A DNA stretch of 18,818 nucleotides, taken from Chloroflexota bacterium (lineage in GTDB: Bacteria > Chloroflexota > UBA6077). The DNA is taken from positions 1 through 18,818 of the forward strand of contig JAJYKO010000016.1 of the NCBI GenBank assembly GCA_021788565.1. The letters are read 5' to 3'. The notes under the pieces were generated by a model. That model made no database searches. It was not told the origin of the DNA and saw only the letters and a program-made list of their open reading frames with translations. A program made the position numbers and the translations under genes. Shown here in pieces: positions 1,268 to 13,051 of this stretch (position 1 is the first letter of the stretch; each line of letters starts with the position of its first letter).

Positions 1268-2887
1268 GTGGTGATTCGGTTGAGCACCTTATCCGTCGTT
1301 CGCCAGGTAACGTGGGTCGGGTACCTCGTCGCGGCCGTCGCGGCTGGCCTGGTCACGGCATTCGTCGGGGTTCTCCAGGGCTACCTCCACGCGCCGAACC
1401 TCTCAGTGCTGTACCTGTTGGCGGTGCTGGCCGCGGCCATCGCCTTCGGCAGGGGACCCGCTATCCTCCTTTCCGTAGCGTCCTTTCTCGCCTTCAACTG
1501 GTTCTTCGTGGAACCTCTGCACAGCTTCACCGTAGACAGGCCGGAGGAGTGGGTGGCGCTGGTTGTCTTCCTGGTGGTCGCCATCATCGTCAGCCAGCTC
1601 GCGTCCGCTCAGAGGCTCCGGGCGAAGGAGGCCGAACAGCGGGAACTCGAGGCCGAGGTCCTTTACGAGGTGGTGAGGCTGATGGGAGAGCCGGACCTGG
1701 AGTCCGCTCTCAGCGCAGTGGGCGAGGGCCTAAAGCGTACGCTGAACCTGGCAGCTGTGGTCATCGACCTGCCCGACCCGGCTGGAGCTGCCGTCAGGGT
1801 ATCGGTCGGCGATCCCGAATCCATTCGCCAGGTGACCTCGGCACCACTCGGACCGGGCGAGATCCTGGGCAGCGGTCGGGCGCCCGGCGCGGAGCGCGGA
1901 GCGGTTCCCGGGCGGTGGATCAGGGTGGTGCCGCCCTTCTCTCCGAACCCTCACGGTGCCTCTCTGGCCGGCCGCGTCCATGCCGTGCCGGTCAAAGCTG
2001 GAGACGGAAGGTTGGGGATGCTACTGCTGGTCTCCACGCCAGGCGGACTGCGGTTCGGCCCAGCCGACGACAGGCTCCTTTCGGCCGTATCTGCCCAGCT
2101 TGGCCTCGCCATCGAGCGCAGGCGTCTCCGCAGGGATGCCACGGAGGCCGAGATCCTGCGGCGCGCGGACGGCCTGAAGAGCGCCCTGCTGAACGCGGTC
2201 TCCCACGACCTGAGGACCCCCCTCGCCTCCATAATCGCCTCCGCCGGCAGCCTCCTTCAGCGCGACGTGGTCTGGACGGAGCAGGAGCGACAGGACTTCG
2301 CGGAGGCCATAGATGAAGAGGCGCGGCGCCTGAACAGGATCGTGGCCAACCTGCTGAACCTCTCCCGGATAGAGTCCGGGAACCTGCGGCCGGAGAAAGG
2401 CTGGTACGACTTCGGCGCCCTGGTGGACGACGTGCTGGGGAGGCTGAGTCCCCTGACGGCTCGCCATCGAGTGGTGACCGACGTGCCGGAAGAGCTGCCG
2501 CCGGTGTTCCTGGACTACGTGGAGATCGATCAAGTGCTCTCCAACCTGGTCGAGAACGCATCCAAGTATGCCCCCGCGGACAGCGAGATCCGCGCCTCCG
2601 TGCGGCTGGAAGGAGCGGAGGTCAGGGTGGAAGTAGCGGATGGTGGTCCTGGTATCCCACCAGCTCAGATCTCGCGGCTGTTCGATCCCTTCAGCCGACC
2701 CGGGGACGACCGATCACGACCGAAGGGCACCGGTCTGGGCCTGGCGGTGGCCAGGGGGCTGGTGGAGGCCCACGGGGGGAGGATCTGGTTCGAGAACCGG
2801 CCCAGCGGGGGAGCTCTCTTTGCTTTCACCCTGCCCGTGACTCAGCCGGATGAGGCGCAGGCCGGTCGGGGGTTGGGAGATGAATAG
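1268..2887 (+). CDS. KdpD-type sensor histidine kinase lacking the N-terminal KdpD/Usp domains
   Basis: 539-residue membrane histidine kinase. Residues about 15-112 hold four close hydrophobic segments of the DUF4118 type found in KdpD. A GAF-like segment follows at about 130-285. The dimerisation/phosphoacceptor box is NAVSHDLRTPLAS with His313. The HATPase domain carries the N box (DQVLSNLVENASKYAP, 421-436), G1 (DGGPGIP) and G2 (GTGLGL, 487-492). Classical KdpD is about 900 residues, with an N-terminal KdpD domain and a Usp domain; both are absent, so this is only the C-terminal half. The GTG at 1268 is the longest start; GTG 1271 or TTG 1280 are possible and no strong ribosome site is visible. 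It overlaps the kdpE start by 8 nt. It presumably autophosphorylates in response to K+ or osmotic state and passes phosphate to the adjacent KdpE. Confidence 0.9.
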   Translation: MVIRLSTLSVVRQVTWVGYLVAAVAAGLVTAFVGVLQGYLHAPNLSVLYLLAVLAAAIAFGRGPAILLSVASFLAFNWFFVEPLHSFTVDRPEEWVALVVFLVVAIIVSQLASAQRLRAKEAEQRELEAEVLYEVVRLMGEPDLESALSAVGEGLKRTLNLAAVVIDLPDPAGAAVRVSVGDPESIRQVTSAPLGPGEILGSGRAPGAERGAVPGRWIRVVPPFSPNPHGASLAGRVHAVPVKAGDGRLGMLLLVSTPGGLRFGPADDRLLSAVSAQLGLAIERRRLRRDATEAEILRRADGLKSALLNAVSHDLRTPLASIIASAGSLLQRDVVWTEQERQDFAEAIDEEARRLNRIVANLLNLSRIESGNLRPEKGWYDFGALVDDVLGRLSPLTARHRVVTDVPEELPPVFLDYVEIDQVLSNLVENASKYAPADSEIRASVRLEGAEVRVEVADGGPGIPPAQISRLFDPFSRPGDDRSRPKGTGLGLAVARGLVEAHGGRIWFENRPSGGALFAFTLPVTQPDEAQAGRGLGDE

Positions 2888-3584
2888 ACCGACCGGGGCG
2901 CTGGTCCTGGTGGTGGACGACGAGCCCGCCATACTGAGGGCGGTGCGGGCCAACCTGTCGCGTCACGGGTTTCAGGTGGAAACGGCCGAGAGCGGCGCGG
3001 AGGCTCTGGAGAGCTGCTCGCGGCTTCACCCCGACCTGATACTGCTGGATCTGGGGCTGCCCGACATGGATGGCATGGAGGTGATCCGGATCGTGCGCTC
3101 CCGCGACAGCACTCCCATCGTCGTGCTCTCCGTCCGGGGTGCGGAGTCCGACAAGGTGGCCGCCCTGGACCTGGGGGCCGACGATTACCTGTCCAAGCCC
3201 TTTGGCGTGGACGAGCTGCTGGCGCGCATCCGGGTGGCGCTCCGCCACGCCGTGCGTCCCTCCAGCGGTGCGGCGGCCCAGTTCCGAACGGGGGAGCTAG
3301 AGGTGGACCTGGAGCTGCGGCGGGTCACGGTGGCTGGCAGGGAGGTACATCTCTCGCCAACGGAGTACCAGCTTCTCAAGGCGTTCATCTCCCACCCCAA
3401 CAAGGTGCTCACCGACCGGATGCTGCTCCAGCAGGTGTGGGGGCCGGAGTACGGCTCCGAGGCGCACTACCTGCACGTGTATGTTGCGCGGCTGAGGAAG
3501 AAGCTGGAGGAGGACCCGCAGCGCCCCCGCTACCTGACGACCGAGCCCGGCGTGGGCTACCGCCTCCTCGCGGAGGGGTGCTAG
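2880..3584 (+). CDS. kdpE: KdpE-type response regulator (OmpR/PhoB family)
   Basis: 234 residues from ATG 2880, chosen over ATG 2850 because GGGGGTTGGGAG lies just upstream and because the start overlaps the kinase stop (ATGAATAG), a normal coupling arrangement. The receiver domain has the acidic pair D13-D14, phosphoacceptor D57 in LILLDLGLPD, and the KPF lysine in ADDYLSKPFG. The C-terminal winged-helix domain contains LSPTEYQLLKAF, VLTDRMLLQQVWG and the GYRLL ending. LSxRxxESDKxAALDxGADDYLSKPFG closely resembles E. coli KdpE. It is expected to bind DNA when phosphorylated. No kdpFABC operon is in the window; the nearest downstream transport genes are the two KimA-type transporters, which are plausible targets by inference. 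Confidence 0.95.
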   Translation: MNRPTGALVLVVDDEPAILRAVRANLSRHGFQVETAESGAEALESCSRLHPDLILLDLGLPDMDGMEVIRIVRSRDSTPIVVLSVRGAESDKVAALDLGADDYLSKPFGVDELLARIRVALRHAVRPSSGAAAQFRTGELEVDLELRRVTVAGREVHLSPTEYQLLKAFISHPNKVLTDRMLLQQVWGPEYGSEAHYLHVYVARLRKKLEEDPQRPRYLTTEPGVGYRLLAEGC

Positions 3585-3673
3585 CACTGTTGATGTAATG
3601 TTGAGCGTGAGGAAGGCCGTTGTTGACACCTCGTTGAGCGTTCCTGACCACAATAATCTTGAGGTAATGTGGG

Positions 3674-3955
3674 ATGGAACGTTCCGGCGAGAAAACCGAA
3701 CCCTTGACCATGGAGCGGCTGGAGGTGCTCTCCAACTGGGCTGCCTCCGTACGCGCCGCCTGCGATACGCTACGGCGAGCATCGGCGCGGAGCATGATGT
3801 CGATTATGGTCACCGGCAGGCTGGATGGCCCTCAGGGCGAAGCAAGCTTGCTGCGGGGGTTGAGCAACGAGCTTGCCGAGAGATACGGCCTTCGAGCAGC
3901 AGTGGATCTGGATGGAAGTGCCTTCACTGTGCGCTTCAGTCGCGCGGTCGCCTAA
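3674..3955 (+). CDS. Hypothetical 93-residue protein
   Basis: I do not recognise this protein. The frame has the GC-rich third-position bias of its neighbours. GAGG sits at 3661-3664, 9 nt before the ATG. The sequence suggests a helical N-terminal half (ERLEVLSNWAASVRAACDTL) followed by a helix and two strands (LSNELAERYGLRAAVDLDGS, then AFTVRFSR). There is no signal peptide or membrane segment, so it is probably cytosolic. It lies 89 nt after kdpE and 241 nt before the first KimA-type gene. A role tied to the two-component system or to the transporter is possible from position only. Confidence 0.65.
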   Translation: MERSGEKTEPLTMERLEVLSNWAASVRAACDTLRRASARSMMSIMVTGRLDGPQGEASLLRGLSNELAERYGLRAAVDLDGSAFTVRFSRAVA

Positions 3956-4078
3956 ACCTCCCCTCACGCCGCCCCCTCAGCCATTCTCCGAGGTTCGCCG
4001 CGGTGAATCACGCCGTGCACCCCGGCATGGAAATCTGGGATTCTGGCCTTGTTGGCCCGTTTGATGCCGAAATAGTGT

Positions 4079-4105
4079 GAGAAGAGGCGGCAGCCGTCTC
4101 TTCTC
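4079..4105 (+). terminator. Strong hairpin in the leader before the first KimA-type gene
   Basis: An 11-bp stem (GAGAAGAGGCG paired with CGTCTCTTCTC, one G-U pair) closes a 5-nt loop. There is no T-run after it (TTGATG follows), so it is not a classical intrinsic terminator. It could end the transcript of the 93-residue gene with help from another factor, or be part of a structured leader for the transporter. The segment 3956-4078 just upstream also has short stems (for example CCGTGC/GCATGG at 4012-4029). Confidence 0.5.
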
Positions 4106-4126
4106 TTGATGTGTGACCTGATCACG

Positions 4127-4149
4127 ATGTACAGTGTTTGAGTGTACAT
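4127..4149. promoter_or_regulatory. Candidate operator: inverted repeat ATGTACA - 9 nt - TGTACAT
   Basis: A perfect 7-bp inverted repeat with a 9-nt spacer lies 47 nt upstream of the first KimA-type start. Its right arm overlaps a -10-like CATAAT (4147-4152). The geometry fits a dimeric repressor or response-regulator site over a promoter. A short TTAACCCGG follows at 4152-4160 and recurs upstream of the second KimA-type gene (6251-6259). The binding protein is unknown; KdpE is only a candidate by neighbourhood. Confidence 0.5.
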
Positions 4150-4196
4150 AATTAACCCGGTCGAATGCGATTGATTTTTCTGGTGGAGACAACAGT

Positions 4197-6248
4197 GTGA
4201 CTGCCGACGAGAAGTCCCCCTCGCCATCCCAACATCACGAAGATAACAAGTCCTCGGCTCCTTTTCACCCGGATCTGGTGTGGCGTGAGGAGGTGACGGG
4301 TACCCGGCCTGGCGACAGGGTGGTGCGCATTGCCAGGCACCGCTACTTCCGCGGCCTCGGCCCGGCGGTGCTGCAGCCGCAGCCGGAGGCGACGGTGCCA
4401 CACCAGGGGTTCGGAAGACTCTGGTGGAGGTTCAAGCACTTCCTCATCGGTCAGCCGATTCCGACGATACGGGAGGGCGAAGAGCGGCTGAGCAAGATGA
4501 AAGCGCTAGCTGTCCTCTCCTCGGACGCGCTTTCTTCGGTAGCATACGGCACTGAGGCCGCAATGCGGGCTCTCCTGTACGCGGGCGTCGCCGCACTGGC
4601 GCTTACCCTGCCTATCTCCGTTGCCATCGCCCTGCTGCTGATCATCGTGGCAACCAGCTATCAGCAGACTATCGAGGCGTACCCAGGTGGTGGCGGCTCC
4701 TATATAGTGGCCCACGAGAATCTGGGGGTGATACCTGGGCTCACCGCTGCGGCGGCACTCTTGGTGGACTACGTCCTGACGGTGGCCGTGTCGATTGCCG
4801 CAGGCATCCTGGCTCTCGCGTCGGCATTCCCCTCGCTGATCCCATACGAGTTGGAGATGTCCGTCGGGATGGTGGTGGTGGTCACCATACTGAACCTTAG
4901 GGGTGTACGGGAGTCTGGCAGCATCTTCGCCGTTCCAACCTACGTCTTCATAATCTCTATTCTAGGGTTGATCGCTCTTGGCTTGTTCCGGGCTGTCACC
5001 GGCGGCATCCCGTACACACCCGGCCCTGCCGGCCCAACTGCTGGAACACAGTCGCTGACCCTGTTTCTGGTACTCTCCGCCTTTGCCCGCGGCTGCACTG
5101 CTATGACCGGCACCGAGGCTATCGCCAACGTCGTGCCGGTCTTCAAGAAACCTGAACCCACGAACGCCAGGATCACGCTGGGCTGGATGGCCGCCATCCT
5201 CGCCATCATGTTTGTGGGGATATCTTTCCTTACGACACACATAGGGATAGTGCCGGTTCCAAATGAGAGTCAGACGGTGCTGAGCCAGGTGACCCATCTG
5301 ATTGTGGGAGACGGCTGGTACTACTACCTTGTGCAGTTCTCCACCATGCTGATTCTCTCGCTGGCCGCCAACACTAGCTTCAACAGCTTCCCGCGCCTGC
5401 TGTATGTCATGGCCCGGGATCGCTACGTGCCGCGCTGGTTCGGTCTAAGGGGCGATCGGCTGGTCTACTCGACGGGTATTGTCGCCCTGGCGGCTTTCTC
5501 CATTTTGCTGCTGGTAGCCTTCAGCAGCCGCGTGGACAGCCTGCTGAACCTGTACGCAATAGGCGTGTTCACCAGTTTCACCCTCAGCCAATCCGGCATG
5601 GTGCGGCACTGGTTGAAAGGCAACGAGCCCAATCGCAAGCGCAAGGCGTTCATCAACGGCCTGGGCGCGGTGGTGACCGCCATGGTTACCCTCATCATTG
5701 CCGTTACCAAGTTTGCCGAGGGTGCCTGGATCGTCATCGTCATTGCCCCCATTCTGATCTCGATATTCGTGTGGATTCATGGCCACTACTGGTCGGTTTC
5801 GAGACAGCTGCGCACCAAAGTGATCGTCAAGCCAAAGGGCGCGCCTCCCCTGGTACTGGTGCCGATTCCCAATCTGAACCTGGTGACTCGCCAGGCCCTG
5901 GCCTTTGCCCAGGACCTGAGCAGCCGGGTCGTGGCCGTCCACGTAACGTCGGACCTGAAAGAGGCCGAAGCCCTCCGAAGCCAGTGGCACGAGGTGGTCG
6001 GGGACAACGTTTCGCTGGTAATCGTCGAGTCACCCTACAGGCTGCTGCTGCCCCCGCTCTTGGCCTACGTGGACGCCCTCCGCGACACCCATCCCAACGA
6101 CAATCTGCTTGTGGTGCTTCCGGAGTTCGTGCCGAAGCACTGGTGGGAGAACATCCTCCACAACCAGACGGCGCTTCGCTTGAAAGCCGCGCTGCTCTAC
6201 AGACCGGGGGTGATGGTCACCAGCTACCCGTATCAGCTCGCGGAGTAG
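4197..6248 (+). CDS. kimA: KimA/KUP-type K+ importer (APC superfamily), copy 1
   Basis: 683-residue polytopic permease closely resembling B. subtilis KimA (formerly YdaO), a proton-coupled high-affinity K+ importer. From residue 80 it follows the KimA pattern: FLIGQPI, then KALAVLSSDALSSVAYGTE, AYPGGGGSYIVAHENLG, VDYVLTVAVSIAAG, GTEAIANVVP, AANTSFNSFPRLLYVMARD and TLSQSGM. About 12 membrane segments are followed by a cytosolic C-terminal domain ending NILHNQTALRLKAALLYRPG. D110, Y117, D191, T195 and S199 align with KimA D36, Y43, D117, T121 and S125 (KimA numbering recalled). An extra N-terminal tail of about 75 residues (HPDLVWREEVTG, PGDRVVRIARHRYF) is not in B. subtilis KimA. The GTG start has GGTGGAGA upstream. 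The family has often been annotated merely as amino-acid permease. Confidence 0.88.
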   Translation: MTADEKSPSPSQHHEDNKSSAPFHPDLVWREEVTGTRPGDRVVRIARHRYFRGLGPAVLQPQPEATVPHQGFGRLWWRFKHFLIGQPIPTIREGEERLSKMKALAVLSSDALSSVAYGTEAAMRALLYAGVAALALTLPISVAIALLLIIVATSYQQTIEAYPGGGGSYIVAHENLGVIPGLTAAAALLVDYVLTVAVSIAAGILALASAFPSLIPYELEMSVGMVVVVTILNLRGVRESGSIFAVPTYVFIISILGLIALGLFRAVTGGIPYTPGPAGPTAGTQSLTLFLVLSAFARGCTAMTGTEAIANVVPVFKKPEPTNARITLGWMAAILAIMFVGISFLTTHIGIVPVPNESQTVLSQVTHLIVGDGWYYYLVQFSTMLILSLAANTSFNSFPRLLYVMARDRYVPRWFGLRGDRLVYSTGIVALAAFSILLLVAFSSRVDSLLNLYAIGVFTSFTLSQSGMVRHWLKGNEPNRKRKAFINGLGAVVTAMVTLIIAVTKFAEGAWIVIVIAPILISIFVWIHGHYWSVSRQLRTKVIVKPKGAPPLVLVPIPNLNLVTRQALAFAQDLSSRVVAVHVTSDLKEAEALRSQWHEVVGDNVSLVIVESPYRLLLPPLLAYVDALRDTHPNDNLLVVLPEFVPKHWWENILHNQTALRLKAALLYRPGVMVTSYPYQLAE

Positions 6249-6250
6249 TC

Positions 6251-6290
6251 TTAACCCGGATGTAGTATAATGTTGTGTCAGTTCGGGTTA
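6251..6290 (+). promoter_or_regulatory. Promoter-like region of KimA copy 2 with inverted repeat TAACCCG/CGGGTTA
   Basis: A perfect TATAAT lies at 6266-6271, in the 63-nt gap between the two transporter genes, with no clear -35. It is framed by TAACCCG (6252-6258) and CGGGTTA (6284-6290), an exact 7-bp inverted repeat. TTAACCCGG here matches the copy at 4152-4160 in front of the first transporter, suggesting shared control. Copy 2 may also be read through from copy 1. Confidence 0.5.
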
Positions 6291-6311
6291 TGACTGCGCG
6301 GAGGCCGTTCG

Positions 6312-8357
6312 GTGACCACCGATGGGCGACGCTCGGCGGCCCCGGCCGAGACGCCTGAAAAGCGATCCAGCTCCTTCCATCCAGATCTCGCCTGGCGCGA
6401 AGAGGTCACCGGTCACAAGCCCGGCGATCGCATTGTGCGGATCTCGCGGCACCGCTACTTCTGGGGATCCGCCAATGGGAGCCTGCTCCCGCGGCCTTCC
6501 GCTACGGAGCCGCGTAACGGCTGGGAGTGGGTCTGGCACCAGATCAAGCTTGTTCTTCTGGGCACCCCGCTTCCTACCTCCCGAGAGTCGCAGGAACGAC
6601 TCTCGAAGATGAAGGCACTGGCGGTTCTCTCCTCCGACGCGCTTTCCTCGGTGGCCTACGGGGGCGAGGCGGCGATGCGGGTCCTGCTGTATGCGGGCGT
6701 TGCCGCACTGGCGCTCACCCTGCCTATCTCCATCGCCATTGCCCTGCTGCTGGTCATCGTGGCAACCAGCTATCAGCAGACCATCAGGGCATATCCGTCC
6801 GGTGGTGGCTCCTATATAGTGGCCCACGAGAATCTGGGGGTGATTCCTGGCTTGGTTGCCGGAGCTGCCCTGCTGATCGGCTACGTGTTGACGGTTGCCG
6901 TCTCGATCGCCGCCGGCGTCGATGCTCTGGTCTCCGCTTTCCCTGTGTTACAGCGCTGGGACCTAGCGCTGGCCGTTGGCGCTGTGGTTCTTGTCACTGT
7001 GATGAACCTGAGGGGGGTGCGGGAGTCGGGAAGCGTGTTCATGGTCCCGACCTACGTCTTCGTATTCTCCATCTTCGGCATGATCGCCTTCGGGCTCTAT
7101 CGGCTGGCAACTGGCAACATTTCGTACCACCCCGCGGATCCCGGACCGCTCGCAGCGACGCAGCCGCTGACGTGGTTCCTCATCCTTTCAGCCTTTGCCA
7201 AGGGATGCTCGGCCATGACCGGGACCGAGGCGATAGCCAACGCGGTCCCCGCGTTCCACGCGCCCGAGCCCAGGAACGCACGGCTGACCCTGGGGATGAT
7301 GGCCGCCCTGCTGGCCACGATGTTCGTGGGTATCTCCTTCCTGGTGGTGCAGATTGGGATAGTGCCTGCCGTCGACGAGAGCAAGACCGTACTTAGTGAC
7401 CTAACCAGGACGGTAATGGGCGAGGGCTGGTACTACTACGTGGTTCAGTTCGCCACAGCCTTGATCCTGCTGCTGGCCGCCAACACCAGCTATACGGGCT
7501 TTCCATGGCTACTGAGAGTCATGGCTCGCGATAGCTACGTTCCCCGCTGGTTCGGCATGCGGGGCGATCGCCTGGTCTTCTCCACCGGCATTGCTGCCCT
7601 CGCCGTCGCGTCCATCGTTCTGCTTCTGCTGTTCGGAAGCAGCGTAGATAAGCTACTTCCCCTCTACGCCATCGGCGTGTTCACGGCCTTCACCTTGAGC
7701 CAGTCGGGCATGGTCGTGCACTGGCTCAAAGGGCGCGAGGCGAACCGTATCAGGAGCGCTACCATCAACGGCGTGGGCGCGGTAACGACCGGGGTCGCGA
7801 CGGTCGTCATAGGGATCACCAAGTTCGGCGAAGGGGCGTGGATGGTCATCGTCGTCGCCCCCGTACTGGTGGGGCTCTTCCTGGCGATCAACGGCCACTA
7901 CCGGTCCGTCGTCAAGCAGCTGAGCTTCCGCAGCGATGTGAGGTCAACCGGAACACGCCCCATGGTGTTGGTCCCCGTTGCTAGCGTTAACCTGGTCACC
8001 CAACAGGCGATGGCCTTTGCCCAGGACATCGGCGATCACGTGGTTGCTGTCCACGTTTCCGCGGACCCGGCCGAAGCGGAGGCGTTGCGCGCGGAATGGC
8101 AGAAGGCGATCGGCGATGTCCCGCTGGTGATCATAGAGTCGCCCTACCGGCTGCTGCTGCCCCCGCTGCTGGCGTACGTGGATGCACTGCGGGAGAGCCA
8201 TCCCGCCGATGGGCTGGTGGTGATGCTTCCCGAGTTCGTGCCCAAGCACTGGTGGGAGAACATCCTTCACAATCAAACGGCGCTGCGGCTGAAGGCTGCG
8301 CTCCTCTATCGCCCTGGGGTTGTGGTTGCCAGCTTCCCGTTCCACCTGGCCGAGTGA
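6312..8357 (+). CDS. kimA: KimA/KUP-type K+ transporter (APC superfamily), copy 2, diverged ion site
   Basis: 681-residue paralogue of the preceding gene along its full length, including the N-terminal HPDLAWREEVTG/PGDRIVRISRHRYF tail, the membrane core and the C-terminal domain (NILHNQTALRLKAALLYRPG). GTG 6312 is the start, with GGAGG at 6300-6304. D109 and Y116 match KimA D36 and Y43, but the position equivalent to KimA D117 is Gly190 (LLIGYVLTVAV), where copy 1 has Asp191. T194 and S198 are kept. The lost acidic residue should alter K+ or H+ coordination, so substrate or coupling may differ from copy 1. The pair arose by tandem duplication; a 38-bp stretch (4695-4732 and 6807-6844) is still identical. 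It is likely an integral inner-membrane protein, possibly forming homo- or heterodimers as KimA does through its C-terminal domain. Confidence 0.86.
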   Translation: MTTDGRRSAAPAETPEKRSSSFHPDLAWREEVTGHKPGDRIVRISRHRYFWGSANGSLLPRPSATEPRNGWEWVWHQIKLVLLGTPLPTSRESQERLSKMKALAVLSSDALSSVAYGGEAAMRVLLYAGVAALALTLPISIAIALLLVIVATSYQQTIRAYPSGGGSYIVAHENLGVIPGLVAGAALLIGYVLTVAVSIAAGVDALVSAFPVLQRWDLALAVGAVVLVTVMNLRGVRESGSVFMVPTYVFVFSIFGMIAFGLYRLATGNISYHPADPGPLAATQPLTWFLILSAFAKGCSAMTGTEAIANAVPAFHAPEPRNARLTLGMMAALLATMFVGISFLVVQIGIVPAVDESKTVLSDLTRTVMGEGWYYYVVQFATALILLLAANTSYTGFPWLLRVMARDSYVPRWFGMRGDRLVFSTGIAALAVASIVLLLLFGSSVDKLLPLYAIGVFTAFTLSQSGMVVHWLKGREANRIRSATINGVGAVTTGVATVVIGITKFGEGAWMVIVVAPVLVGLFLAINGHYRSVVKQLSFRSDVRSTGTRPMVLVPVASVNLVTQQAMAFAQDIGDHVVAVHVSADPAEAEALRAEWQKAIGDVPLVIIESPYRLLLPPLLAYVDALRESHPADGLVVMLPEFVPKHWWENILHNQTALRLKAALLYRPGVVVASFPFHLAE

Positions 8358-8391
8358 GCCATTAGCTGTTAGAAATTAGCCATAAGAAACT

Positions 8392-8421
8392 TTGACAACT
8401 CAATTGGGGAAGGCCTAGAAT
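8392..8421 (+). promoter_or_regulatory. Sigma70-type promoter of the usp gene
   Basis: A perfect TTGACA (8392-8397), an 18-nt spacer and TAGAAT (8416-8421). The predicted start is near 8428, giving a 5' leader of about 70 nt that contains the hairpin at 8458-8483. It makes the usp gene independent of the transporters upstream. Confidence 0.7.
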
Positions 8422-8457
8422 CTCGGGTCGCTTAGAAGAAAAGTTGGTACTTTTCGG

Positions 8458-8483
8458 CTCCGCGCCTCACTTTGGGCGCGGAG
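8458..8483 (+). promoter_or_regulatory. Hairpin in the 5' leader of the usp gene
   Basis: CTCCGCGCC pairs perfectly with GGCGCGGAG across an 8-nt loop. It ends 8 nt before the GAGGTGA ribosome site. There is no following T-run, so mRNA stabilisation or translational control is more likely than termination. Confidence 0.5.
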
Positions 8484-8498
8484 ACCGTTGCGAGGTGA

Positions 8499-8933
8499 AT
8501 GTTGGCAGTGACCCCCGGCAAGATACTGGTGACGGTCAGCGGTGGTGAGCTGGACGAAGAGATGGTGGATTTTGCCTGCTATCAGGCAAAGCGGTCTCGC
8601 GGAAGGCTGTATGCCGTCTACGTGATCGAGGTGAAGCGAGAATTGCCGTTGGAAGTGGACCTGCCGGCGGAAGTGGAGAAGGGCGAGGAGATTCTCCAGA
8701 ATGCAGAAGACGTGGCGCGTCGCTGGAAGCAAGAGATGGATACGGAGGTGCTGCAGGCCAGGGATGCAGGCACCGCCATCGTCGAGGAAGCTGAGAGGCG
8801 AGGTGTTGATCTGGTGATCGTCGGCCTGAGGTACAGGAAGAAGTTCGACCAGTTTTACATGGGCAGCACGGTGTCCCACGTCTTGAAGAACGCACCCTGT
8901 CGAGTTTGCGTATGCAGGGAGCCGATTCCGTAG
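8499..8933 (+). CDS. Universal stress protein (UspA family), stand-alone
   Basis: Single Usp domain of about 144 residues: N-terminal strand KILVTVSGGELDEEMVDFA, central helices with EVLQARDAGTAIVEEAERRGVDLVIVGLR, and the C-terminal GSTVSHVLKNAPCRVCVCRE. In ATP-binding Usp proteins the motif is G-2X-G-9X-G-S/T. Here the second Gly is absent (GLRYRK) while GST is present, so nucleotide binding is uncertain. GAGGTGA abuts the ATG at 8499, so initiation may instead be at TTG 8502 or GTG 8508, which have better spacing. It lies between the KimA-type transporters and the TrkA pair. The adjacent KdpD-type kinase lacks the Usp domain normally found in KdpD, so a partner role is conceivable. Confidence 0.88.
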   Translation: MLAVTPGKILVTVSGGELDEEMVDFACYQAKRSRGRLYAVYVIEVKRELPLEVDLPAEVEKGEEILQNAEDVARRWKQEMDTEVLQARDAGTAIVEEAERRGVDLVIVGLRYRKKFDQFYMGSTVSHVLKNAPCRVCVCREPIP

Positions 8934-8982
8934 TTCGTGGTGGACCGGGCTGATCGTGGCCCAGGCCTAAACCTTTCTTTTT

Positions 8983-9010
8983 TTGATGCCGGCGTTCTGG
9001 TGGGTAGAAT
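8983..9010 (+). promoter_or_regulatory. Promoter of the trkA pair
   Basis: TTGATG (8983-8988), a 16-nt spacer and TAGAAT (9005-9010), about 40 nt before the ATG at 9050. The -35 lies in a T-rich run (8977-8984) that follows a weak GGGC/GCCC stem (8947-8962), so a weak terminator for usp may overlap it. Confidence 0.6.
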
Positions 9011-9049
9011 CAGAACAATAGGGTTGGCGTCCAGGAGGTAAACTCTGCG

Positions 9050-9454
9050 ATGAGAGTTGTCTTGATGGGGTGCGGACGAGTAGGCAGCCGGCTGGCTACC
9101 ACGCTCGATGCCGAAGGCCACGAGGTGGTCGTGATCGACTACAATTCCAGGGCTTTCAGACGGCTCCCTCAGAGCTTCAAGGGAACCACGGTGTTGGGCA
9201 CAGGGATCGACGAGGACGTGCTGATACGTGGGGGAATAGAAAGGGCGGACGTGTTCGTCGCGACGACGGAGGGCGACAACCGCAATATCATGGCGGCGCA
9301 GGTGGCGCAGAAGGTGTTCAACGTGCCTACGGTTATCGCTCGAATGTACGATGTGGGCCGGGCGGAGATCTTCGAGAAGTTGGGGGTGAAGACGTACTGT
9401 CCAACCCTGATAGGCGCCCAGCTACTTCACGACATGATTCTGGGGAACAGGTAG
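9050..9454 (+). CDS. trkA: TrkA/RCK N-domain K+ regulatory protein, single domain (CeoB-like)
   Basis: 134-residue RCK_N Rossmann protein. The nucleotide-binding GCGRVG is at 7-12, and the acidic residue closing strand 2 is D30 (VVVIDYN). DVFVATTEGDNRNIMAAQVA and PTVIARMYDVGRAEIFEKLGV are typical of TrkA, whose members bind NAD(H) or ATP/ADP and gate K+ channels. There is no TrkA_C domain. AGGAGG at 9033-9038 precedes the ATG. The stop abuts the ATG of the second trkA gene, so the two are one operon, as in the mycobacterial ceoB-ceoC pair. No TrkH/KtrB membrane subunit is in the window, so the target may lie elsewhere or be the KimA-type transporters upstream. Confidence 0.92.
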   Translation: MRVVLMGCGRVGSRLATTLDAEGHEVVVIDYNSRAFRRLPQSFKGTTVLGTGIDEDVLIRGGIERADVFVATTEGDNRNIMAAQVAQKVFNVPTVIARMYDVGRAEIFEKLGVKTYCPTLIGAQLLHDMILGNR

Positions 9455-10117
9455 ATGTACATCGTCGTTGTTGGTGGCGGCAAAGTTGGGTACTACCTCA
9501 CGCGGGAGTTGCTGGAGCAGGGGCACGAGGTTCTGCTGGTCGAGAGAAAGCCGGAGCGAGTGGATCGGATCATCGAGGTGCTGGGGAACGTCGCGGTGCT
9601 GGGCGACGGTTGCGAGTTGGCGGTCCTGTCCGAGGCCGGTGCCGCGCGATCCGACGTGCTGGTCGCGGTGACCGGCGACGATGAGGACAACCTTGTCGCC
9701 TGCCAGGTCGCCAAGAACCATTTCCACGTGCCCAGGACCATCGCCCGGATAAATAATCCCGAGAACGAGGACATATTCCGCCTTCTCGGAATCGATGTTA
9801 CTGTGAGCGCGACCACAATCATGATGTCCATGATCGAGCACGAGATGCCCCGGCGCGCCCTGCTGCATCTGCTGGCCATCCAACACATGGGGGTGGAGAT
9901 CGTGGAGGCCGTGCTCCTGGCGCAGGCGCCGGGTGTTGGTAAGAGCATCTCTGACTTGAGGCTACCGGCTGACTCTTCCATCGCGGCGGTCATCCGTGAT
10001 GGCCAGTTCCTGATCCCGTCGGGGCAGCTCGCGCTTCAGGAGCGAGACGAGATCATCGCCCTCTGCAAGCCGGAGCGCGAGATGGAGCTTCGAAACGCAC
10101 TGCTGGGCCCAGCGTAG
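9455..10117 (+). CDS. trkA: TrkA-type K+ regulatory protein with RCK_N and RCK_C domains (CeoC-like)
   Basis: 220 residues. The RCK_N Rossmann fold has GGGKVG at 7-12 and an acidic strand-2 residue E30 (LLVERKPERVD). LGDGCELAVLSEAGA, DVLVAVTGDDEDNLVACQVA and IARINNPENEDIFRLLGI follow. An RCK_C domain occupies about 140-220 (VEIVEAVLL, then ERDEIIALCKPE). The ATG directly follows the TAG of the previous gene (0-nt gap) with GGGGAACAGG as ribosome site, indicating coupled synthesis and likely a heteromeric ring of short and long RCK subunits. It is probably cytosolic, binding NAD(H)/ATP and regulating a K+ transporter. Its transcript ends at the palindrome at 10119-10275. Confidence 0.93.
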   Translation: MYIVVVGGGKVGYYLTRELLEQGHEVLLVERKPERVDRIIEVLGNVAVLGDGCELAVLSEAGAARSDVLVAVTGDDEDNLVACQVAKNHFHVPRTIARINNPENEDIFRLLGIDVTVSATTIMMSMIEHEMPRRALLHLLAIQHMGVEIVEAVLLAQAPGVGKSISDLRLPADSSIAAVIRDGQFLIPSGQLALQERDEIIALCKPEREMELRNALLGPA

Positions 10118-10118
10118 G

Positions 10119-10275
10119 TAGCTGATAGCTATTAGCTATTAAGCTATTAGCAGTTAGCTATTAGGGGCGGAAAGAAGCGAGAAGCAACCCGATGCTCTGT
10201 CGCTGCTCGCTTCTTCAGTAGCCGCTTATGGCGTACAGCCAACAGCTAATAGCTAATTACTAATGGCTATTAGCT
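10119..10275. repeat. Large imperfect palindrome between convergent genes (AGCTATTAG-rich arms)
   Basis: The left arm (10120-10160), rich in AGCTATTAGC units, aligns with the reverse complement of the right arm (10236-10275) over about 40 nt with a few mismatches and one gap. Nested inside are GCGG/CCGC and AAGAAGCGAG (10171-10180) with CTCGCTTCTT (10206-10215). The AT-rich arms contrast with the GC-rich genes. It fills the whole gap between trkA (plus) and the HNH gene (minus), so it may act as a bidirectional terminator. It may also be a MITE-like dispersed repeat; a related fragment lies at 8361-8386. Confidence 0.65.
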
Positions 10276-10884: not shown

Positions 10885-12318
10885 CTATCCCCTTGCCCTC
10901 TCCCCTCGTCTCCCGGTCTCCCCGTTCCCGCGTCCCTTGGACGTCGTCGGCTGGGCTTTGCGCTGGGGGGTGGCTCGGTAGGAAGGCGCTGAGATGGGGC
11001 AGAGAGTGCTAACCTTCAGGTCGGCCAGCCGCGAGGCCAGCCTCTCATCCAGTTCGTCCAGTGCCAGGTTGGTTGTGATCACCGTGGGCAGCCGATGGTT
11101 GTAGCGATGGTTGATCAGCTGATAAAGCTTCTCCTCGGCCCAGGGAGTGCTGCTGTGGGCACCCAGGTCGTCCAGGATCAGTAGCGGTGCGGTCCGAATC
11201 GTCTCGAACAGCTCATCGTAGGGAATCTTGCTGTCCGGGCCATAGGCGGAGCGGAGATGATCCAGCAGGTCCGGGACTACGACGAAGTAGACCGGCTTGC
11301 CCCGCGCGATCAACCGGTTTGCTACCGCCGCTGCCAGGTGCGTCTTGCCACAGCCCGTGGGCCCCAAGAGCACCAACCAGAGATGAGGCTCCTCCGCGAA
11401 CTCCCTGGACAGCTTGTATGCTTTCTCCAGGCTGTCCATGGCCTTCTCGTCCACGGCCTGCCCTCGCCGGTCGAATCCCTCGAAGGTCATTCCCTTAAGA
11501 AGTTCCGGCAGTTCGGCGCTGAGCGATTCCTGGGCCGCCGTGAGCCGTTCTTCGACCACACACACCACGCTCAGGGCCGGGTCTGTCATTCGCGAGCGAA
11601 GCCGCTCCTCGATCTCGGCGATGGATCGGTTGGAGGTGATCACAGTGGGGAACCTTGCGTTATAGCGGTGGTTGAAGATCTGGTAAAGCTTCTCCTGGGC
11701 CCACGGTGTCGCGCTCTGAGTGCCCAGATCGTCGAGGATCAGTAGCGGAGCGGCCTTCACATTCTCGAACAGTTCGTCGTAGGGAACCTCGCTGGAGGGA
11801 CTGAACGAAGAGCGGAGGTGATCCAGGAGGTCCGGCACCACTACGAAGAGCACCTGCTGCCCGGCAGCGATTCGCTCGTTGGCGATGGCCGCGGACAGGT
11901 GGGTCTTGCCGCAACCGCTGGGGCCGAGCAGCACGAGCCACCCCTCCGGAGAGCGGGCGTAGTCGCGGCAGATGTTGTACGCTTTGTGGAACCGCTCGCG
12001 GGCCTGAGGGTCGGAGCTTCGGCCCTGGTTCAACAGACTGTCGAAGGTGAGGCGCACCAGGGGGCCCAGGTTGCTGAGGCGCTCCAGCTTGTCCTTTCGC
12101 TCTCGAGTCAGACTATCGGTTCGGCAGCGACACAGTACGAGCTTGCCGAAGTCCGGATGGCCCGGGGGCAGATCCACCCGCAAGAAGCCCGCCCCCTTGC
12201 AGATGGGGCATACGGTCTCCTCGGGCTCGCCGCTATCGGTTGAGGAGGTGGGCGTACTTCCCTCCGAGGTATTTCGAAGGGGACCCAGATCCCTTAGTAC
12301 GTCGCCTAGCCGTTCCAT
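10885..12318 (-). CDS. DnaC/IstB-type helicase-loader ATPase with two tandem AAA+ domains
   Basis: 477 residues from ATG 12318 (MERLGDVLRDLG), preceded by a purine-rich GGGGAGAGGGGAGG. N-terminal CxxC (C37, C40) and CxC (C63, C65) form a zinc-binding module. Domain 1: LTFDSL lead-in at about 90, Walker A GPSGCGKT (132-139), Walker B LLILDD (192-197), VITSN, and RLRSR arginine finger region (239-243). Domain 2 repeats all of it: MTFEGFDRRGQ, GPTGCGKT (319-326), LLILDD (379-384), VITTN, RLASR (426-430). The repeat period is 187 residues. DnaC/DnaI loaders normally have one AAA+ domain in about 250-300 residues. It is presumably the loader for the DnaB helicase encoded upstream. It overlaps the dnaD end by 86 nt. 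The last 20 or so residues (GRGNGETGRRGERARG) come from a G-rich repeat. Confidence 0.88.
   Translation of the reverse strand: MERLGDVLRDLGPLRNTSEGSTPTSSTDSGEPEETVCPICKGAGFLRVDLPPGHPDFGKLVLCRCRTDSLTRERKDKLERLSNLGPLVRLTFDSLLNQGRSSDPQARERFHKAYNICRDYARSPEGWLVLLGPSGCGKTHLSAAIANERIAAGQQVLFVVVPDLLDHLRSSFSPSSEVPYDELFENVKAAPLLILDDLGTQSATPWAQEKLYQIFNHRYNARFPTVITSNRSIAEIEERLRSRMTDPALSVVCVVEERLTAAQESLSAELPELLKGMTFEGFDRRGQAVDEKAMDSLEKAYKLSREFAEEPHLWLVLLGPTGCGKTHLAAAVANRLIARGKPVYFVVVPDLLDHLRSAYGPDSKIPYDELFETIRTAPLLILDDLGAHSSTPWAEEKLYQLINHRYNHRLPTVITTNLALDELDERLASRLADLKVSTLCPISAPSYRATPQRKAQPTTSKGRGNGETGRRGERARG
10888..10937 (-). repeat. G-rich repeat forming the C-terminal tail of the loader gene
   Basis: On the minus strand the segment is a run of GGGAACGGGGAGACCGGGAG-like units, encoding NGETGRRGERARG. 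Such purine-rich GGGGAGAC-type runs are typical of intergenic dispersed repeats, here read as the end of a protein. Confidence 0.5.
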
Positions 12319-13051
12319 CCTCCCCTCTCCCCTCAGTGGCCCAGTTTTCCAGTATTCGGCGCACATAGCGCCAGTTCCGCTTGTTGTAGCTGATCGCCTC
12401 CCGGAAGGCCTCATATATCCAGTCAGCGGGATAGGCTTGCTCGGCCTGTTGCAGCTCCTCGGCGATCAGTGGTGTGATCAGACCCACGTTCTGCTCGTAA
12501 AGGTCGTAGATACTGGGGCGCTGCTCAGGCACCGCGACCCAGCCCGGTCGCGGGACCGCACCCTCGGCTAGAGAGAGCTCACCGCGCTCGGCACGCTCTA
12601 TCAGATTTCGGTTAAGTGCAGTGTTCAGCAGGTAGCAACGATCCTCGGCTTCGCCGACGAGGAGTGGCGCGGAGACGAAAGTTCCCCGCTCGCATGCACG
12701 GCTTAGCCCCGCGACCAGCGACTGCTCGGGAGACCCGGTGTTGGAGGCCCGCAGCGCCAGCAACAGGGCTCGATCCTTATACAGCTCGCTCAACTGCACC
12801 AGTCGCGGGAAGCCACGCTTCTCGTAGATGAGCCGGAACAGGTGAAGGGTCACCTTGAGTTCTGTCAGGTCGTCCACGTCGGACAGCACGGCGCTGAAGA
12901 ACACGTTGGGAACAGGCGTATACCGCATCCGGTCCGGAAAGCCGGGGAACCTCTTCCGGGGGGTCGGGGGTCGGGAGTCGGGTATCCGGGAAACTGCTTC
13001 GCCTCCGTCGCCCCTGCCCCCTGATCCCTGACCCCTGACCTCGTCACTCAT
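12233..13051 (-). CDS. dnaD: DnaD/DnaB-domain replication initiation protein
   Basis: 272 residues from ATG 13051, chosen because GGAGG lies 9 nt upstream and the start overlaps the dnaB stop (ATGAGTGA); the longer frame up to 13288 is a shadow of dnaB. The N-terminal winged-helix region (TPVPNVFFSAVLSDVDDLTELKVTLHLF) is followed by a C-terminal DnaD-like domain (ITPLIAEELQQAEQAYPADW, EAISYNKRNWRYVRRILENW), ending KYLGGKYAHLLNR. In Firmicutes such proteins help load DnaB at origins and stalled forks. Residues 4-32 are low in complexity and encoded by a G/C-rich palindromic repeat (12957-13040), so this N-terminal tail is probably an insertion. The end overlaps the downstream loader gene by 86 nt. 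Confidence 0.88.
   Translation of the reverse strand: MSDEVRGQGSGGRGDGGEAVSRIPDSRPPTPRKRFPGFPDRMRYTPVPNVFFSAVLSDVDDLTELKVTLHLFRLIYEKRGFPRLVQLSELYKDRALLLALRASNTGSPEQSLVAGLSRACERGTFVSAPLLVGEAEDRCYLLNTALNRNLIERAERGELSLAEGAVPRPGWVAVPEQRPSIYDLYEQNVGLITPLIAEELQQAEQAYPADWIYEAFREAISYNKRNWRYVRRILENWATEGRGEDGTARRRTKGSGSPSKYLGGKYAHLLNR
12957..13040. repeat. G/C-rich palindromic repeat inside the 5' end of dnaD
   Basis: The G-rich arm (12957-12983, GGGTCGGGGGTCGGGAGTC-type units) and the C-rich arm (13008-13040, TGATCCCTGACCCCTGACC-type) are imperfectly complementary, with G-U pairs, around a 24-nt centre. Unit sequence and architecture match the element at 14406-14495. It keeps the dnaD frame open and adds about 29 residues. 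Confidence 0.6.

What the first reader, a model, noticed from the sequence alone, without database searches (positions are those of the whole stretch)
1268..10117. A K+ homeostasis region wired without Kdp ATPase or Trk/Ktr channel
Co-linear on one strand: truncated KdpD-type kinase, KdpE, a 93-aa unknown, two KimA/KUP-type transporters, a Usp protein and two TrkA/RCK proteins. None of the usual effectors (kdpFABC, trkH, ktrB) is present. The arrangement suggests that KdpDE controls KimA-type importers and that RCK proteins gate them, a combination I do not know as a described system. As recalled, mycobacterial ceoBC also lies beside an APC-type permease gene (Rv2690c), so the linkage may be old and functional.
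Basis: partly seen in the sequence, partly recalled or inferred. Interest (0 to 1): 0.78.

Follow-up and report, generated by a model that had tools for sequence, protein, structure and literature searches.

The report
TrkA ring paired with KimA importers
One stretch of bacterial DNA joins a KdpD/KdpE-type gene switch, two relatives of the proton-driven potassium importer KimA and a two-part TrkA-type regulator with no TrkH pore gene beside it; the regulator likely controls the importers, which would be a new job for such proteins.

Summary
The gene string is real. Both permeases are KimA-type (44-45% identity, complete K+ and proton site). The RCK pair matches the two-subunit Thermotoga ring TM1088A:TM1088B, whose known partner is a TrkH channel. 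The "truncated" KdpD is the separate histidine-kinase chain already described for Chloroflexota. In 151 Chloroflexota genomes, 23 of 133 fetched KimA loci carry an RCK pair; 22 of those 23 genomes have no TrkH/KtrB-family match, and in all 23 the linked RCK2 is the genome's best. A KdpD/E-type pair lies within 3 kb of KimA in 28 of 133. Two further genomes hold the whole set in one neighbourhood; KimA also lies by an RCK pair in two of four actinobacterial records. Against a KimA-only ring: it occurs in 118 of 151 genomes without statistical tie to KimA, 2TM channels occur in 14 of the 23, and both KimA keep the c-di-AMP pocket. Where TrkH and KimA are both missing, 22 of 24 ring-bearing genomes have another KUP-like permease (1 of 24 TrkH-bearing controls). 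Best reading: KdpDE likely switches on KimA, and the ring likely regulates KUP-type symporters. No own genome is held; nothing was tested at the bench.

The parts
1268..2887 (+). KdpD-type histidine-kinase chain (DUF4118-GAF-HisKA-HATPase; no KdpD-N, no Usp domain)
   Evidence: Pfam; no KdpD-N match in the window; HK-chain type described in PMC11018627 (passages)
2880..3584 (+). KdpE-like response regulator (ORF listed from 2850; ATG at 2880 overlaps the end of the kinase gene)
   Evidence: Pfam; best NCBIfam model KdpE, 240 bits, under its 325-bit cut-off; sequence
3674..3955 (+). S93, 93-aa orphan protein with relatives beside kdpDE, kimA or kdpA in L052, L056 and L057
   Evidence: predicted alpha-beta model, pLDDT 84
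4128..4148 (.). TGTACA-N9-TGTACA repeat 48 bases before kimA1, possible operator
   Evidence: not found within 500 bases upstream of 148 other KimA
4197..6248 (+). KimA1, KimA-type K+/H+ symporter homologue; D36, Y43, D117, T230, E233, Y377 kept
6312..8357 (+). KimA2, same but Gly in place of Asp117
8357..8386 (.). left copy of an A+T-rich intergenic repeat bracketing Usp-RCK1-RCK2
   Evidence: inverted pair I1, 77% complementary over 30 nt
8392..8421 (+). promoter-like site before usp (TTGACA-18-TAGAAT, 11 of 12)
   Evidence: the window's total of 3 such sites is no more than shuffles give (2.8)
8499..8933 (+). Usp protein of the ring cassette
   Evidence: Pfam; Usp on the strand of the RCK pair in 13 of 20 unlinked cassettes and on the other strand in 2
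9050..9454 (+). RCK1, TM1088A-type nucleotide-binding half (TrkA_N only)
   Evidence: Pfam; PDB 3l4b_A E 3.1e-29; 8 of 9 AMP-site residues kept
9455..10117 (+). RCK2, TM1088B-type half (TrkA_N + TrkA_C)
   Evidence: Pfam; PDB 3l4b_C over residues 1-218, E 1.9e-30
10225..10254 (.). right, inverted copy of the intergenic repeat

Best explanation
The locus encodes a KdpD/KdpE-type two-component pair, two KimA-type K+/H+ symporter homologues, a Usp protein and an RCK pair of the two-subunit ring type, and it most likely works as one potassium-uptake unit in which KdpE would switch on the kimA genes at low K+ and the ring would throttle the symporters in place of a TrkH channel. Shown by sequence: the gene set and order, the complete KimA K+/proton site, the match of the RCK pair to TM1088A:TM1088B, the recurrence of both linkages in other genomes, and the lack of a TrkH match in 22 of 23 genomes with the KimA-RCK linkage. 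Inferred: that KdpE acts on kimA; that RCK1 and RCK2 assemble as in Thermotoga and read adenine nucleotides through RCK1; that the ring touches KimA, a homodimer (that TrkH is one too is recalled). KimA1 keeps Asp117, the proposed sensor for K+ trans-inhibition; KimA2 has Gly and would lack that brake. c-di-AMP would remain a second, direct brake on both.
For: KimA homology and site residues (roles from PMC6994465 and PMC10284832, passages). RCK pair of TM1088 type. KimA-RCK-RCK chain in 23 of 133 KimA loci; 22 of 23 genomes without TrkH; the linked RCK2 is the genome's best in 23 of 23. The one exception, G068, has RCK or TrkA genes in each of its three TrkH clusters. The linkage label needs 12 changes on the KimA tree, 11 forced by supported branches, so it arose or was lost repeatedly. 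KdpD/E-type pair within 3 kb in 28 of 133, 18 of the 27 genomes without KdpA; 0 of 20 control loci. L054 and L064 hold all the main elements together. Actinobacterial L189 and L190. Ring and TrkH negatively associated, p=0.008. Of 24 ring-bearing genomes without TrkH and KimA, 22 have another KUP-like permease against 1 of 24 controls. ceoB and the adjacent Rv2690c share a transposon phenotype in M. tuberculosis (PMC12216072, abstract and passages).
Against: The ring is not associated with KimA across genomes (67 of 118 against 21 of 33, p=0.55) and 24 genomes have it with neither TrkH nor KimA. None of 20 unlinked ring loci fetched has KimA beside it; one follows another APC permease. PF07885 2TM channels, another possible partner, occur in 14 of the 23 linked genomes. 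The known partner of this ring type is TrkH (PMC4380455). KimA keeps the c-di-AMP pocket and diadenylate cyclase occurs in 113 of 151 genomes, so the ring is not needed to explain regulation. The nearest relative, L036, lacks KdpDE near KimA and has TrkH divergent to it. Two of four actinobacterial RCK records fetched have no KimA beside the pair, one being behind a P-type ATPase. Fisher tests ignore kinship. No contact between RCK and KimA was modelled or measured.
Confidence: 0.42

Rival explanations
1. The RCK pair is a general regulator that stands on its own in the genome and serves several or other K+ transporters (2TM channels, KUP-like APC permeases, pumps); its place after KimA only secures joint expression.
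For: Ring in 118 of 151 genomes, no tie to KimA (p=0.55); none of 20 unlinked cassettes fetched has KimA, TrkH or KdpA beside it; an RCK pair lies behind a P-type ATPase in L192; PF07885 in 14 of 23 linked genomes; usp has its own promoter-like site.
Against: Repeated gain of linkage to KimA in more than one gene order; in 9 of 23 linked genomes no PF07885 match, eight or more of them also without TrkH.
Confidence: 0.3
2. The RCK pair is the regulator of an unlinked TrkH elsewhere in the genome, as TM1088 is of TM1089 in Thermotoga, and its place after KimA is not functional.
For: Known partner of the ring type is TrkH (PMC4380455, passages); the nearest relative G068 has four TrkH matches.
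Against: 22 of 23 genomes with the linkage have no TrkH/KtrB match; ring and TrkH are negatively associated (37 of 118 against 19 of 33, p=0.008); in G068 each TrkH cluster has an RCK or TrkA gene of its own, and the one of these in the tree, with two from other genomes, sits on a very long branch apart.
Confidence: 0.12
3. KdpDE here regulates a kdpFABC operon elsewhere in the genome and is only a neighbour of kimA.
For: KdpDE is the kdpFABC regulator (PMC11018627, passages); 9 of the 27 genomes with the HK-RR pair beside KimA also have KdpA; in L057 kdpA lies divergent to HK-RR-KimA.
Against: 18 of the 27 genomes have no KdpA match; 23 of 28 loci have the pair on KimA's strand; the KdpD-N chain that acts on the pump is absent from the window.
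Confidence: 0.13

Closest known systems
Thermotoga maritima TM1088A:TM1088B two-subunit TrkA gating ring (PDB 3L4B) with TrkH TM1089
   Same: Short TrkA_N-only protein plus full RCK protein from adjoining genes; AMP-site residues 8 of 9 kept
   Different: No TrkH in the window; KimA genes stand in its place
KimA of B. subtilis (PDB 6S3K, 8B70, 8B71)
   Same: 44-45% identity, K+ and proton-coupling residues and c-di-AMP pocket kept
   Different: Two copies in tandem, KimA2 with Gly117; no ydaO match in the window; KdpD/E-type and RCK genes beside it
Kdp system of Chloroflexota with split KdpD (ASK and HK chains)
   Same: HK chain and KdpE-like regulator
   Different: No kdpFABC and no ASK chain in the window
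Mycobacterial CeoB/CeoC Trk system with adjacent Rv2690c
   Same: Two TrkA proteins, with Rv2690c next to ceoB (PMC13163235, abstract; PMC12216072)
   Different: Rv2690c was not compared by sequence here; that it is KimA-type rests on recalled synteny with L189

Membership tests
KimA subfamily of KUP symporters | Full-length homology to KimA, membrane and cytosolic domain | tested here: met
   KimA chain residues 4-605 and 2-605 aligned
KimA subfamily of KUP symporters | K+ site and proton-coupling residues D36, Y43, T230, Y377, E233 | tested here: met
   kept in KimA1 and KimA2
KimA subfamily of KUP symporters | K+/H+ symport activity | not testable with these tools
   needs transport assays
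c-di-AMP-regulated KimA | c-di-AMP pocket (R337, P479, V506, H579, N580, Q581, S/T582) | tested here: met
   kept in both copies, Thr at 582; residues from PMC10284832 passages
c-di-AMP riboswitch (ydaO) control | ydaO-type RNA match near kimA | tested here: not met
   no such match up to E 1 in the window
Two-subunit TrkA gating ring (TM1088 type) | TrkA_N-only subunit plus TrkA_N/TrkA_C subunit, best PDB or full-length matches to TM1088A and TM1088B | tested here: met
   RCK1 best match 3l4b_A; RCK2 aligns to 3l4b_C over 1-218, although V. parahaemolyticus TrkA scores higher with two domains
Two-subunit TrkA gating ring (TM1088 type) | Octameric assembly | not testable with these tools
   no multimer prediction at hand
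Trk system (TrkH + TrkA) | TrkH/KtrB pore subunit beside the RCK genes | tested here: not met
   no TrkH match in the window; rest of the genome not held
Kdp system | kdpFABC beside kdpDE | tested here: not met
   no KdpA match in the window
KdpD, split HK chain | TM (DUF4118)/GAF/HisKA/HATPase without KdpD-N | tested here: met
   type described in PMC11018627

The most novel reading that the evidence does not exclude
Two-subunit RCK rings are the regulatory subunits of proton-coupled KUP/KimA symporters in bacteria that lack TrkH: a gating ring known from an ion channel has been re-partnered with a LeuT-fold transporter, and the unnamed membrane partner of the actinobacterial CeoB/CeoC-type TrkA pair is the KimA-type permease beside it.
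Probability: 0.33. Interest if true: 0.87.

Novelty: new variant of a known kind. Interest (0 to 1): 0.62.

Why it matters
RCK rings are known as gates of channels such as TrkH. If such a ring regulates a KimA symporter, that is a new mode of transporter control. It would also give a testable answer to how TrkA pairs work in organisms without TrkH: 81 of 118 ring-bearing Chloroflexota genomes here have no TrkH/KtrB match, and the M. tuberculosis Trk system is described as two TrkA proteins, with the word TrkH absent from the main text of the three papers checked (PMC12136442, PMC13163235, PMC6375644).
Full report
WHAT IS THERE. The kinase has DUF4118, GAF, HisKA and HATPase and no KdpD-N domain. 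The regulator's best NCBIfam model is KdpE, below that model's cut-off. The two permeases align over nearly the whole length of KimA of B. subtilis, their only PDB sequence hit, at 44-45% identity, and are 69% identical to each other. RCK1 has TrkA_N only; RCK2 has TrkA_N and TrkA_C. No TrkH or KdpA profile match occurs in the window. No whole genome is held for it. That it comes from Chloroflexota is inferred from its nearest relatives: four of the five loci are titled Chloroflexi, and its best match is G068 in the sample drawn around one of them.

TWO CORRECTIONS. First, the kinase is not truncated. In Chloroflexota the KdpD serine-kinase chain (KdpD/Usp domains) and the histidine-kinase chain (TM/GAF/DHpCA) are commonly separate proteins (PMC11018627, passages). 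The window has the second. The first phosphorylates the pump subunit KdpB, so it would not be missed where no pump is served (inference). In the 133 KimA loci a KdpD-N open frame was found in five: L039, L053, L055 and L063 (separate) and L140 (fused). Second, the RCK pair is not two generic TrkA proteins. RCK1's best PDB match is TM1088A (E 3.1e-29), and RCK2 aligns to TM1088B over residues 1-218 (E 1.9e-30; V. parahaemolyticus TrkA scores higher with two domains). These are the two subunits of an octameric ring in Thermotoga whose partner is TrkH TM1089 (PMC4380455, passages). Eight of nine AMP-site residues are kept in RCK1.

SURVEY. I searched 151 genomes of the phylum of G002 (the genome of L002) with KimA1, TrkH/KtrB (PF02386), KdpA, RCK2 and diadenylate cyclase. 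KimA1 matches 106 of 151, 88 of them below 1e-100; TrkH 56; KdpA 46 after dropping five cross-hits. KimA and TrkH largely exclude each other: TrkH in 18 of 88 genomes with KimA against 38 of 63 without, p=1.1e-6 without correction for kinship; 40 genomes have KimA and neither of the others. I then fetched up to 20 kb around 133 KimA clusters and annotated them with local profiles.

LINKAGE TO THE RING. In 23 of 133 loci KimA and two RCK genes form one chain on one strand: ten with Usp between, as in the window, and thirteen without Usp, one of these (L168) with the pair before KimA. L136, on a 4.8-kb contig, shows one RCK only. In 23 of 23 genomes the linked RCK2 is the genome's best RCK2 match. 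In 22 of 23 there is no TrkH/KtrB match. The exception, G068, is also the nearest relative of the window (RCK2 75% identical). Its four TrkH matches lie in three clusters, each with an RCK or TrkA gene (one TrkA before two TrkH in C72). One of these RCKs (C95) was put in the tree with two TrkH-adjacent RCKs of other genomes; the three sit on a branch 3.85 long, far from the KimA-linked pairs. The linkage label needs 12 changes on the KimA tree, 11 forced by supported branches, and 5 on the RCK2 side of the ring tree (5 forced by supported branches over both sides together).

LINKAGE TO KDPDE. A KdpD/E-type pair lies within 3 kb of KimA in 28 of 133 loci, on KimA's strand in 23; 18 of the 27 genomes have no KdpA match. 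None of 20 control loci around unlinked RCK pairs has such a pair. In L039 and L140 kdpA, kinase, regulator and kimA are co-linear, so KimA sits in the kdp neighbourhood there. L054 and L064 hold two KimA, Usp, RCK1, RCK2 and a KdpD/E-type pair together, the pair being on the other strand, in genomes without TrkH and KdpA matches. The nearest relative, L036, lacks KdpDE near KimA and has TrkH divergent to it, so the window's exact arrangement is not fixed.

BEYOND THE PHYLUM. Of four actinobacterial RCK records fetched (of five hits), two have KimA by the RCK pair: Nonomuraea L189 (TrmA-like gene, KimA, then divergent RCK, RCK) and Streptomyces L190 (KimA, a TrkA_N protein, RCK, RCK, then convergent KdpE-type regulator and full KdpD); two, L191 and L192, do not, L192 being behind a P-type ATPase. 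The RCKs fall on the RCK1 and RCK2 sides as in Chloroflexota. In M. tuberculosis ceoB and the adjacent Rv2690c share a transposon phenotype (PMC12216072, abstract and passages), and the Trk system is described as two TrkA proteins (PMC13163235, abstract as listed). That L189 mirrors the mycobacterial order from Rv2689c to ceoC is recalled, not tested.

AGAINST. The ring (RCK2 match below 1e-30) occurs in 118 of 151 genomes. It is not associated with KimA (67 of the 118 with ring against 21 of 33 without, p=0.55), though negatively with TrkH (37 of 118 against 19 of 33, p=0.008). None of 20 unlinked ring loci has KimA, TrkH or KdpA beside it by profile; of ten neighbour proteins scanned from nine of them, one, in L178, is an APC permease, without KimA's C-terminal domain. 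PF07885 2TM channels occur in 14 of the 23 linked genomes. Twenty-four genomes have the ring with neither TrkH nor KimA. With the L178 permease as query, 22 of those 24 (its own genome included) match at E 1e-20 or better, against 1 of 24 TrkH-bearing genomes without KimA. The L178 protein has AYGD where KUP proteins have VFGD/IYGD (PMC6994465), so a KUP-like role is plausible but untested, and the weakest of these matches may be other APC permeases. This moves the reading from 'the ring gates KimA' to 'the ring goes with KUP-type symporters where TrkH is absent', and leaves a general regulator as a serious rival.

MECHANISM. KimA residues for K+ binding and proton coupling are complete in both copies (PMC6994465, passages). 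Asp117, proposed there as a sensor of cytosolic K+ for trans-inhibition and dispensable for transport, is kept in KimA1 and is Gly in KimA2 and in the linked KimA of L036. The c-di-AMP pocket (PMC10284832, passages) is kept in both, with Thr for Ser582, and a diadenylate cyclase is present in 113 of 151 genomes, so direct c-di-AMP inhibition is likely too. I propose: low K+ activates the kinase and KdpE, which turns on kimA1 and kimA2; c-di-AMP and, for KimA1, K+ itself brake transport; the ring adds an energy-state input through nucleotides bound by RCK1. Every arrow here is inference.

CASSETTE. Usp-RCK1-RCK2 is bracketed in the window by inverted copies of an A+T-rich intergenic repeat (8357-8386 and 10225-10254); 13 AGCTATTAGC-like sites occur in the window against 0.4 expected. 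Since the ring stands apart from KimA in most ring-bearing genomes sampled, the cassette may have come next to kimA as a block (inference).

VERDICT. The parts are known kinds; the combination, a channel-type ring beside a symporter in genomes without the channel, is a new variant.

Noticed in passing
window 3674-3955; L052:7766-7969, L056:7327-7536, L057:4589-4798: A small orphan protein family (S93) beside kdpDE, kimA or kdpA in four loci; in L057 it stands just before kdpA. The L056 and L057 members are distant. Function unknown; predicted alpha-beta fold without a specific relative.
   Followed up: partly
window 8357-8386, 10120-10163, 10225-10275: A+T-rich intergenic repeats in both orientations flank the Usp-RCK1-RCK2 cassette, perhaps a trace of its movement.
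   Followed up: partly
window 10885-12414 (-): A 509-aa protein with two IstB/DnaC-like AAA stretches, next to DnaB_2 and DnaB helicase genes; an unusual double helicase-loader-like protein.
   Followed up: no
L178:9573-11108 (-) and matches in 22 further genomes: A KUP-like APC permease with an AYGD motif, found in 22 of 24 ring-bearing Chloroflexota genomes without TrkH and KimA and beside the Usp-RCK pair in one.
   Followed up: partly
L192:2430-6558: A Streptomyces P-type ATPase gene followed directly by two TrkA genes, another possible partner for an RCK pair.
   Followed up: no
L135:10092-13409 (-), L134:4542-7856 (+): A 1105-1106-aa Cache/HAMP/GAF/PAS histidine kinase just before KimA-RCK-RCK in the Usp-less group.
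   Followed up: no
G068:C3:153523-154112: A broken second RCK2-like gene (pieces 51-72% identical to the window's RCK2, stops inside) in the nearest relative.
   Followed up: no
window 8499-8933: The Usp protein has G-2X-Y-9X-GS where ATP-binding Usp proteins have G-2X-G-9X-G(S/T) (motif recalled), so it may not bind ATP in the usual way.
   Followed up: no
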